Shown one piece after another: positions 2,759 to 35,380 of a stretch of DNA of 35,428 nucleotides (positions are counted from its first letter, which is position 1; each line of letters starts with the position of its first letter). Below the pieces are notes generated by a model. It was not told the DNA's origin. It was given only the letters and a program-made list of their open reading frames with translations, and made no database searches. The DNA is from Planctomycetota bacterium (GTDB taxonomy: Bacteria > Planctomycetota > Phycisphaerae > Phycisphaerales > SM1A02). The DNA is taken from contig JADFKZ010000009.1 in the NCBI GenBank assembly GCA_022564665.1, forward strand, positions 1 to 35,428, given 5' to 3'. Made by a program: the position numbers and the translations under genes.

Positions 2759-2785
2759 GCGACGATTGTACGGTCCGGCGGGCTC

Positions 2786-2993
2786 GGGTTGTGGGGGTGT
2801 CGGAGAGCCGACGAAGCCACGGTTGGTCCGACGACGAGAAGACCGGGGCTTCGCTTCGCTCAACCCCAGCCACCCGAGCTCAGCCCCAGCCACCCAGCGG
2901 AGCGCACAGGGGTTCGGGGTTCGGGAAACCAGCGAGCTCCCACTCCTGAACCCTGAACCCCTGTCTTTTCTCCGCGGTCCTCCGTGGTGAATC
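2786..2993. repeat. Composite intergenic repeat, copy 1 (hairpin unit, GGGGTTC heptad inverted repeat, tail)
   Basis: This fills most of the 303-base gap between the tRNA and the M14 gene. From 2786 to 2875 runs a hairpin unit closed by gggttg (2786-2791) and caaccc (2861-2866), with an inner hairpin GTCGG/CCGAC (2799-2812) and the shared word cttcgcttcgctca. From 2909 to 2961 two GGGGTTC-type runs are inverted and can pair over 17 bases with two G-T wobbles. From 2969 to 2993 is the tail ttctccgcggtcctccgtgg. Related units occur at 18011-18281, 27879-27957 and 35252-35380. No gene is seen here. Confidence 0.8.
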
Positions 2994-18010: not shown

Positions 18011-18281
18011 GTCACAAAGTTACCGCTGGGACGCAGAGGACGCAGAGAAAACTGAACAACAGATACTTGCAATAGCCGAAAGCCAACAGCCCGTTTCCGG
18101 GTGGCTGTGACGGAGTCCGCCGTAGGCGGACGACGCCACGGTTGGTGCGTCGACGAGAAGACCGCGGCTTCGCTTCGCTCAGCCCCAGCCACCCAGAATT
18201 TGCCGTACTCCGACAGCGGGTCTACTGAACTCTGAATGCTGCTCTGTTCTCCGCGGTCCTCCGCGTCCTCCGCTGTGAATC
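18011..18281. repeat. Composite intergenic repeat, copy 2, with imperfect terminal inverted repeats
   Basis: The region between the permease and IS110 holds no gene. Its outer arms, 18011-18050 (ccgctgggacgcagagga) and 18248-18281 (ttctccgcggtcctccgcg), are imperfect inverted repeats. Inside is the 96-base hairpin unit 18099-18194. It is closed by a perfect 9-bp pair gggtggctg (18099-18107) and cagccaccc (18186-18194), and contains the perfect hairpin GTCCGCC-gta-GGCGGAC (18115-18131). The words accgcggcttcgcttcgctc and tctccgcggtcctccg recur in the copy at 2786-2993. Confidence 0.8.
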
Positions 18282-18287
18282 CGGCCT

Positions 18288-18540
18288 AGCCCCTATGGGT
18301 TACTGTCCGCTGGAATAACGAGGAGCGGGTGCGTGCTCCCGCCCCTCGTCAGGCCGTGTGCGACCGTGTCAGGACTTCTTAGCCCCAGCTCCATCGTCGA
18401 GAGCCAGAACTGGACCGTCCGGCACGGTACGCCCATTCGCGTAGGGTCGTTACGCAGTCGCCCATCGTCAACTCGATAGGGCCGCCATAGGGGAACCGCC
18501 ACAGAATGGGAACCGGCGAACTCCATACATAAGCGCACGC
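18288..18540 (+). ncRNA. Candidate IS110 bridge RNA in the noncoding left end
   Basis: IS110-subgroup elements encode a bridge RNA in the noncoding end upstream of the recombinase, with one loop pairing to target and one to donor DNA. The position and the roughly 250-base length fit. A strong stem-loop is visible: 18318-18329 pairs with 18338-18349 (ACGAGGAGCGGG against CCCGCCCCTCGT, one mismatch, 8-nt loop), as expected for the 5' stem-loop. TCCGGC at 18418-18423 repeats the bases next to the proposed CT core. The guide loops were not resolved and the exact RNA ends are unknown. Confidence 0.4.
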
Positions 18541-18553
18541 AAGGAGGCGTCTC

Positions 18554-19753
18554 ATGCTTATCGTCGGCATTGACTGGTCAAAAAGCAAGCACGACGTGGC
18601 TCTGATGGAGCCTGACGGAAGTGTGCTGCAGCACTTGGTGGTGGAGCACTCGCTCGAGGGCCTGGAGGCCCTCGGCGGCGCCATCGGGCGTCACGAGAGC
18701 GATCGGGGCGAGGTCCACATCGCGATCGAACAGCATGACGGTGCGCTGCTCGCCTGGCTCCGCGCACAGGGCTACATCGTCCACGGGATCAATCCCAAGA
18801 GCGCCCAGCGCGCCCGAGACCGCTACCGGCCCGCCGGGGCCAAGGACGATCGGTCCGACGCGTACATCCTGGCCGACATGCTTCGCCAGGATCGCGGCAA
18901 CCTCCGGCCGCTGGGCCGGGAGAGCCAGACGCCCGCGGAGCTTCGCACGCTGGGCCGGTTGCGGGCCCAGCGGGTCCAGGAGCGTACGTCCCCGATGCAG
19001 CAGCTGCGGGCGCTGCTGGACGACTGGTGTCCGGAACTCGGCACATTGTGCAACGACTTCGGGAACGTCGCCTGGCAGCGTGACTTCCTCAGACGCTTCC
19101 CGCTGCTCGAGGATCTGGCGACGGCGCATGGTCGAACCGTGAATGCCTTTATCCGCCGACACCGCATGCGTGCGGCCACGGCCGATCGCATTCGTGAGCT
19201 TCGCAAGTGCCGCGGGCTTCCCATCCCGGCCGGGCGGGAGGCGGCGCTGCGACTGGACATTGCCTTCCTGGTTGACCAGGTGGAGCGTCTCACCGAAGCC
19301 ATCCGGAGCATCGAGCTGCAACTGCAGCGGCTGATCGACCAGCACCCGGACGCCGAGATCTTCCAGTCACTGCCCGTGAAGGGACTGGTCAGCATCAGCG
19401 GTCTGCTGGGAGCGTTCTCCGGGCAGGACGCCCCGCGTCACACCGAGCTCGCAGCACGCTGGGGCGTCGCCCCGGTCACCGTCGCCTCGGGCCGCAGCCG
19501 ATTCGTCAAGTACCGCCGGGCCTGTGACGGATACATGCGCGAGGTTCTCATGTTCTTCGCCTTCAACACCGCTTTCCGATCCGACTGCTGGGCGCACGAC
19601 TACTACCGCCGCAAGCGAGCGGCCGGCGCGACGCACTACGGTGCGCTTCGATGCCTCGCCCAGCGCTGGCTCAAGATCATCTGCCGGATGTGGACGGACA
19701 AGACAACCTACGACGAGCAGTTCCACCGACGTCGCCTGTCGCTCGTGCCTTGA
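18554..19753 (+). CDS. IS110-family transposase (DEDD recombinase)
   Basis: The ATG at 18554 has a strong AAGGAGG six bases upstream. The 399-residue product is full length. The N-terminal RuvC-like DEDD domain shows D7 (VGIDWSKSKHDVA), E59 (VHIAIEQHDG), and D99 and D102 (KDDRSDAYILADML). A central coiled region is followed by the C-terminal Tnp20 domain (LPVKGLVSISGLLGAFSG, then LAARWGVAPVTVASGRSRF), where S312 is the candidate catalytic serine. These enzymes cut and join DNA in RNA-guided recombination through a circular intermediate. No frameshift or missing key residue is seen, so it may be active. No second copy lies in this window. Confidence 0.95.
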   Translation: MLIVGIDWSKSKHDVALMEPDGSVLQHLVVEHSLEGLEALGGAIGRHESDRGEVHIAIEQHDGALLAWLRAQGYIVHGINPKSAQRARDRYRPAGAKDDRSDAYILADMLRQDRGNLRPLGRESQTPAELRTLGRLRAQRVQERTSPMQQLRALLDDWCPELGTLCNDFGNVAWQRDFLRRFPLLEDLATAHGRTVNAFIRRHRMRAATADRIRELRKCRGLPIPAGREAALRLDIAFLVDQVERLTEAIRSIELQLQRLIDQHPDAEIFQSLPVKGLVSISGLLGAFSGQDAPRHTELAARWGVAPVTVASGRSRFVKYRRACDGYMREVLMFFAFNTAFRSDCWAHDYYRRKRAAGATHYGALRCLAQRWLKIICRMWTDKTTYDEQFHRRRLSLVP

Positions 19754-27878: not shown

Positions 27879-27957
27879 TAGCTGACAGCCCGTTTCTGGG
27901 TGGCTGTGACGGAGTCCGCCGCAGGCGGACGACGCCACGGTTGGTCCGTTGACGCCA
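27879..27957. repeat. Composite intergenic repeat, copy 3, cut short by a group II intron end
   Basis: gctgacagcccgtttc and the hairpin unit from 27898 (gggtggctg, then GTCCGCC-gca-GGCGGAC at 27914-27930, then gacgccacggttggt) match copy 2 closely. The match stops after ttggtccgttgacgccaag, where the intron domain VI begins at 27961. The right half (cttcgcttcgctca... ccaccc) is missing. Confidence 0.75.
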
Positions 27958-27960
27958 AGC

Positions 27961-28032
27961 GGCGAGTAGGCCCGGAGGCTTGCGCCCCCAGGCCTCTCAC
28001 AGAACCGGACTTGTGGACCACACATCCGGCTC
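27961..28032 (-). mobile_element. Group II intron 3' terminus (domains V and VI), relic
   Basis: On the minus strand a domain V-like hairpin (28032-28002) reads GAGCCGGA... TCCGGTTC with the catalytic AGC triad; the terminal loop is shortened, 31 nt against the canonical 34. Domain VI follows (28000-27961): 11 pairs, GGCCTGGGGGC with GCCTCCGGGCC including two wobbles, closed by a GCAA tetraloop, then TACTC, which holds the expected bulged branch-point A. The 3' splice end would be near 27960. No reverse transcriptase or 5' domains are present nearby, so it is a fragment. Confidence 0.7.
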
Positions 28033-28122
28033 TTCAGGTCAAGATCTCGGTCAGCCGAACAGCGCAAGCTGCTCGCCCGAGACCCGCAAGGGCGGATTGA
28101 GACTGCCCGGGCGGCCGGTTCA

Positions 28123-35251: not shown

Positions 35252-35380
35252 GGGGATCAGGGGTTCGGGGTTCGGGGTTCAGGGGTAGATGTTCATCGCT
35301 TTCCCGAACCCTGAACCCCGAACCCCCCTCCACCGATCGACCGACCGGGGCTTCACTTCGCTCAGCCCCAGCCACCCGCA
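35252..35380. repeat. Composite intergenic repeat, copy 4, with G4-tract array and long hairpin
   Basis: Five GGGG tracts separated by 3-4 bases (35252-35285) face an inverted run of CCC(C)GAAC/TGAAC heptads (35303-35326), so the two arms can form a 24-bp hairpin with two mismatched or wobble positions. The piece gaccggggcttcacttcgct then cagccccagccaccc (to 35380) is the right half of the hairpin unit found at 2786-2875 and 18099-18194. The word agctgacagcc follows. The repeat has no coding content. Confidence 0.75.

What the first reader, a model, noticed from the sequence alone, without database searches (positions are those of the whole stretch)
18099..18194. Dispersed structured repeat whose inner hairpin is preserved by different bases in different copies
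Seen directly: this 96-base unit is closed by a perfect 9-bp pair and holds GTCCGCC-gta-GGCGGAC. The copy at 27898 has the same stem with loop gca. The copy at 2786 has an unrelated stem of the same kind at the same place (GTCGG/CCGAC) and a different closing pair (gggttg/caaccc). The copy at 35340 keeps only the right half. All lie in gaps, three of them behind gene 3' ends. Paired changes suggest that a fold is selected, either as RNA or as DNA for a mobilising enzyme (REP/TnpA-REP or MITE style). This could be an undescribed structured element of this lineage.
Basis: partly seen in the sequence, partly recalled or inferred. Interest (0 to 1): 0.72.

Follow-up and report, generated by a model that had tools for sequence, protein, structure and literature searches.

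The report
Planctomycete REPIN family with its RAYT
The repeat is one of over 100 copies of a short cloverleaf-shaped mobile DNA element (a pair of inverted REP hairpins, or REPIN) that sits in gaps at gene ends in this genome and is very probably spread by a REP-associated tyrosine transposase whose single gene is flanked by the same element.

Summary
The 96-98 nt unit occurs at least 106 times in this 3.06 Mb draft genome, 97% intergenic, mostly within ~50 bp of gene 3' ends; no close copy was found elsewhere. It is a pair of inverted REPs (REPIN/BIME). Each half has a GTGG foot (GGGTGGCT), a short lower stem, a near-invariant unpaired GA/GA step and an exchangeable hairpin tip. The genome's one close RAYT gene (HUH + Y; passes the NCBIfam REP_Tyr_transpos cut-off) has a full copy of the element 59 bp upstream and 30 bp downstream. 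All 30 RAYT loci examined (29 in other genomes of the order) carry shared repeats on both sides, mostly with a GGGTGSC-type foot and genome-specific hairpins. There are no target-site duplications. The 'paired changes' are mostly swaps of whole palindromic tips; base-by-base covariation is nearly absent (0 of 33 pairs in 27 copies). Verdict: new member of a known kind (RAYT/REPIN). By-product: 9 of 11 group II intron 3' ends, and all five 5' ends found, sit at one site inside this element.

The parts
18099..18194 (+). Complete REPIN copy: two inverted REPs, outer stem GGGTGGCT/AGCCACCC
   Evidence: 98.6 bits
18099..18139 (+). Left REP (REP-A): foot GGGTGGCT 18099-18106, lower stem GTGACG/CGCCAC (18107-18112 with 18134-18139), GA/GA step (18113-18114, 18132-18133), tip GTCCGCCGTAGGCGGAC 18115-18131
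   Evidence: Read from sequence; scheme
18164..18194 (-). Right REP (REP-B), read on the minus strand: foot GGGTGGCT 18194-18187, lower stem 18186-18181 with 18169-18164, GA/GA step, tip GCGAAGC 18178-18172
   Evidence: Read from sequence
2785..2876 (+). Degenerate REPIN copy: left foot damaged, arm-1 tip GTCGG-agag-CCGAC, right half intact
   Evidence: 62.5 bits
27897..27956 (+). Left part of a REPIN copy, cut off in the arm-2 loop by a group II intron 3' end
   Evidence: exact junction base approximate
27961..28034 (-). Group II intron domains V-VI (RF00029, 39.3 bits, just under the gathering score of 40) joined to the REPIN copy
35340..35378 (+). Right half (REP-B) of a REPIN only

Best explanation
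The element is a REPIN/BIME: two REP sequences in inverted orientation, mobilised in trans by a RAYT (TnpAREP-type HUH/Y1 transposase) encoded once in the genome at G000:C142:255-824. Inferred mechanism, by analogy with E. coli TnpAREP: when one strand is exposed as single-stranded DNA it folds into the cloverleaf; the RAYT binds the GTGG foot, the lower stem and the unpaired GA/GA step of each REP, cuts with its tyrosine, and moves or copies the doublet without target-site duplication; copies survive in gene-free gaps, mostly behind genes. Shown here: anatomy, copy number, placement, RAYT linkage, absence of TSDs, tip exchange. Inferred: binding, cleavage, active strand and transposition itself.
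For: At least 106 copies in the genome, none comparable in 60 relatives. RAYT gene with full elements on both sides at C142:86-195 and 855-954; a random flanking on both sides is expected with probability about 0.001 (rough). RAYT passes the NCBIfam NF047646 cut-off, 83.3 vs 80 bits; only PDB match is TnpAREP 4er8, weak, E=0.001; H65, H67, W122, Y144 and N148 invariant in 14 relatives. All 30 RAYT loci examined have flanking repeats above shuffled controls, and G023's RAYT is flanked by that genome's own elements. Closest RAYTs (55% and 50% identical) go with near-identical REP-B sequences. 95 of 98 copies intergenic, 84 of 95 nearest a 3' end. No TSD in 57 copies. Tip swaps with conserved lower part match the in vitro finding that the unpaired step matters and the upper hairpin is non-specific (PMC8266576).
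Against: No transposition was observed, and no same-genus genome was held to show empty sites. The copies' near lack of compensatory changes means folding selection rests on architecture and tip swaps alone. The parser requires GA on both sides of the tip, so the GA/GA statistic there is partly circular (the alignment is independent of it). Strand polarity is only weakly visible.
Confidence: 0.93

Rival explanations
1. A MITE: terminal inverted repeats GGGTGGCT/AGCCACCC recognised by a DDE transposase from an unseen parent insertion sequence, leaving target-site duplications.
For: Short size, inverted ends, high copy number.
Against: No target-site duplication in 57 copies with intact ends; the internal hairpins and foot match REP architecture, and a RAYT is flanked by the element.
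Confidence: 0.02
2. A structured RNA element (3' UTR stabiliser, terminator or small RNA) selected for its fold and spread by selection rather than by mobility.
For: Placement behind genes and between convergent genes; strong predicted folds, z about -3 to -4 for intact copies. REPs are known to act secondarily on mRNA ends.
Against: No Rfam match; no compensatory base pairs in 27 copies; copies lie in both orientations relative to genes (36 same, 48 opposite at 3' ends); flanks do not show a T run after the hairpin. A secondary RNA effect is not excluded.
Confidence: 0.03
3. A REPIN that is no longer mobile: the RAYT is domesticated, and the present mosaic is shaped by recombination, gene conversion and other mobile elements.
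For: Group II introns use it as a site; flanks are mosaics of other repeats; tip swaps look like local conversion. RAYTs are described as not self-propagating (PMC6006769).
Against: The RAYT ORF is intact with invariant catalytic residues, and many copies are near-identical. This is compatible with the best explanation for the past and differs only on present activity.
Confidence: 0.3

Closest known systems
REPINs of Pseudomonas fluorescens SBW25 (PMC3116915)
   Same: Inverted REP doublet, hairpin and clover fold, extragenic, high copy, linked to a cognate RAYT; compensatory changes were reported there too
   Different: Here the two REPs have different lower stems, the variable part is mainly exchanged as whole tips, and base-by-base compensation is nearly absent
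E. coli REP/BIME with TnpAREP (PMC8266576; PDB 4er8)
   Same: GTRG foot, stem interrupted by a conserved unpaired step, non-specific upper hairpin; two REP types combined in BIMEs
   Different: GTGG instead of GTAG, GA/GA instead of AA/GC mismatch, unrelated stem sequences; RAYT only weakly similar to 4er8
Tagged REPs and 'double foot' REPs (PMC3733652, PMC6006769)
   Same: Tagged REPs were already reported in Planctomycetes/Verrucomicrobia; GT[AG]G at one end and its complement at the other
   Different: This exact family was not seen in the passages read; assignment to a TnpAY1 subclass was not tested with those authors' profiles

Membership tests
RAYT-associated REP / REPIN | Short palindromic repeat, high copy, extragenic | tested here: met
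   At least 106 copies; 95 of 98 intergenic against 81% coding coverage
RAYT-associated REP / REPIN | 5' GT(A/G)G foot before an imperfect hairpin | tested here: met
   GGGTGGCT foot plus stem with near-invariant unpaired GA/GA step in both halves
RAYT-associated REP / REPIN | Two inverted REPs forming one folded unit (REPIN) | tested here: met
   Cloverleaf folds; halves parsed
RAYT-associated REP / REPIN | Cognate RAYT gene flanked by the same REPs | tested here: met
   C142: elements 86-195 and 855-954 around ORF 255-824
RAYT-associated REP / REPIN | RAYT with HUH and catalytic Y motifs | tested here: met
   NF047646 over cut-off; H65, H67, W122, Y144 invariant in 14 sequences
RAYT-associated REP / REPIN | RAYT cleaves single-stranded REP | not testable with these tools
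   Needs purified protein
DDE-type MITE | Target-site duplication | tested here: not met
   None in 57 copies with intact ends
Structured RNA family (Rfam) | Match to a described RNA family | tested here: not met
   No match
Structured RNA family (Rfam) | Covarying base pairs | tested here: not met
   0 of 33 pairs in 27 copies; 5 double-change cells in 79 copies

The most novel reading that the evidence does not exclude
The hairpin tips of these REPs are free, interchangeable modules above a fixed foot / lower stem / GA-GA recognition unit, so one RAYT serves a mosaic population of REPINs; and the REP-B hairpin is in turn the homing site of a second selfish element, a group II intron lineage that inserts at one site in the REPIN.
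Probability: 0.6. Interest if true: 0.5.

Novelty: new member of a known kind. Interest (0 to 1): 0.36.

Why it matters
This agrees with the in vitro finding that the upper hairpin is non-specific. It also offers a natural case of a group II intron that appears to have specialised on a REPIN.

Tried and rejected
Pfam PF01797 search of the own genome found only another Y1 protein on C213 with no element nearby, which at first looked like evidence against a RAYT; a protein query from a relative's RAYT found the real one. RNAalifold's consensus gave a rod-like alternative and one covarying pair at the flank; not used. Strand polarity from wobble pairs looked strong on parsed halves (35 vs 5 single-change cells), but the parser's filter favours it; unfiltered it is weak, so it is not claimed. 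IS110 as the cause: the window's IS110 gene is single-copy and starts 360 bp from the element, so no link is claimed. A 19-mer of the element in 84,980 GTDB genomes gave two hits in unrelated taxa, taken as chance (records of the window's own genome may be left out there). Structure prediction of the RAYT was not run, because loci from the genome search are not among the stated permitted inputs.

Full report
CHECK OF THE OBSERVATION. The four window copies are as described, and the core motifs are not expected by chance. The unit is one of many: a covariance model from 27 copies (R1) finds 106 places at E<=2e-5 in the 3.06 Mb assembly (only 150 of 3889 first-look candidates were scored, so this is a lower bound). 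Sixty relatives, 36 of them from the same family, hold no copy at comparable score; the best relative scores 38 bits against 124. The window is contig C190 of a 226-contig draft, 91% complete.

ANATOMY. Consensus: GGGTGGCT-GTGACG-GA-[tip]-GA-CGCCAC-GGTT-GGTC-N12-GACC-GGGGCT-TC-[tip]-TC-AGCCCC-AGCCACCC. It folds as a cloverleaf (some copies prefer an alternative rod-like fold): outer stem, arm 1, a small arm 2 with the most variable sequence in its loop, and arm 3. Read from the outside in, each half is the same thing: a GGGTGGCT foot, a six-base lower stem, an unpaired 5'-GA/GA-3' step, and a hairpin tip. Arm 1 shows this on the top strand and arm 3 on the bottom strand, so the element is two REPs in inverted orientation. 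The mismatched bases are nearly invariant although they never form Watson-Crick pairs.

THE 'PAIRED CHANGES'. In 98 copies, 151 halves fit the scheme (the parser requires GA on both sides of the tip). Tips fall into three main classes: GTCCGCCGYAGGCGGAC (13, left arm), GTCCCGATNNNATCGGGAC (52 left, 21 right), GCGAAGC (64, right arm). The lower stems stay arm-specific apart from a few chimeras. The change is therefore a swap of whole palindromes. Base-by-base covariation is nearly absent: no pair with a change on both sides in 27 copies and 5 Watson-Crick double changes among 79 copies. One linked two-sided change in arm 3 (G-C to T.G on the bottom strand, 23 halves) looks like one inherited subfamily.

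THE ENZYME. A Pfam search missed the RAYT. In relative G023, a Y1 transposase gene proved to be flanked by that genome's own elements. Its protein finds exactly one homolog in the window's genome, at C142:303-779. The ORF is 255-824, 189 aa, and full elements lie at C142:86-195 and 855-954. It passes the NCBIfam REP-associated tyrosine transposase cut-off, its only PDB match is TnpAREP 4er8, weak, and HUH, W, Y and N residues are invariant in an alignment of 14. In the order, 78 of 301 genomes searched have a relative. All 30 loci examined, the own one included, share repeats between their two flanks that score above shuffled controls; most have a GGGTGSC-type foot, and the hairpins differ between genomes. 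The closest RAYTs (55% and 50% identical) go with nearly the same REP-B sequence in five or six copies per genome. This indicates an inherited RAYT-REP pair that expanded in this lineage.

PLACEMENT AND MOBILITY. With a codon-usage gene caller trained on the window, 95 of 98 copies are intergenic against 81% coding coverage; the nearest gene end is a 3' end in 84 of 95 cases (median 50 bp), and 49 of 75 gaps with a gene on both sides are convergent. There are no target-site duplications in 57 copies with intact ends, and a TTC just upstream is conserved. This fits Y1 single-strand transposition and not a DDE MITE.

COMPARISON WITH KNOWN SYSTEMS. RAYT genes flanked by inverted GT(A/G)G REPs (PMC2817692), REP doublets as replicating REPINs with a clover fold (PMC3116915), tagged REPs in Planctomycetes (PMC3733652), 'double foot' REPs (PMC6006769) and TnpAREP activity that needs an unpaired step but not a specific upper hairpin (PMC8266576) are all known. 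Every sequence-level defining feature tested was met; biochemical cleavage was not testable. I therefore file it as a new member of the RAYT/REPIN kind. The modular tips are its most distinctive trait.

A SECOND PARASITE. The window copy at 27897 ends in a group II intron domain V-VI. Of 11 such 3' ends in the genome, nine are joined to a REPIN left half at the same arm-2 loop site; the other two are not. Five 5' ends (GTGTGCCGAGCATG...) all follow REP-B plus GGTCTTC or GGTCTTT; these five were met through element hits, so they are not an unbiased sample. C139 holds a whole intron of about 0.73 kb between the two halves of one REPIN, too short for a full reverse transcriptase ORF. In intron orientation the REP-B hairpin stands just upstream of the insertion point, the arrangement described for group IIC introns at terminators and attC sites (PMC7923331). 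The intron's class was not determined. A REP association of group II introns was noted before only weakly (2 of 9 in P. putida KT2440; PMC1525189).

Noticed in passing
window 27897-28034; L189-L191, L193-L195, L197-L203, L068 (C139:16480-17251): Group II introns sit at one site (arm-2 loop) of this REPIN: 9 of 11 intron 3' ends in the genome and all five 5' ends seen; one complete ~0.73 kb ORF-less intron splits a REPIN on C139.
   Followed up: yes
window 18554-19753: Single-copy IS110-family transposase gene (DEDD_Tnp_IS110, Transposase_20) starting 360 bp after the 18099 copy; IS110 elements are known to target REPs, but no junction was identified.
   Followed up: partly
window 2855-2896; L115:955-1015; many own-genome copies: Tandem 20-bp truncated right feet (GAGCTCAGCCCCAGCCACCC) following the right end of many copies.
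   Followed up: no
window 18028-18098, 18195-18290, 35259-35328 and flanks of most copies: The gaps are mosaics of other dispersed repeats (CTCCGCGGTCCTCCGCGGTGAATCTTCGCC; GAACCCTGAACCCC; GCTGACAGCTGATAGC types) abutting the REPINs.
   Followed up: no
L127, L129, L130 (G269); L128 (G098); L062, L065, L066 (G023): REPINs of the same architecture with other sequences in related genomes, some nearly two-fold symmetric; GTAG-type foot in G098.
   Followed up: partly
G000:C213:7364-7477 (L031): A second, divergent Y1 transposase-like ORF (263 aa; NF047646 30.5 bits, below cut-off) with no element beside it.
   Followed up: partly
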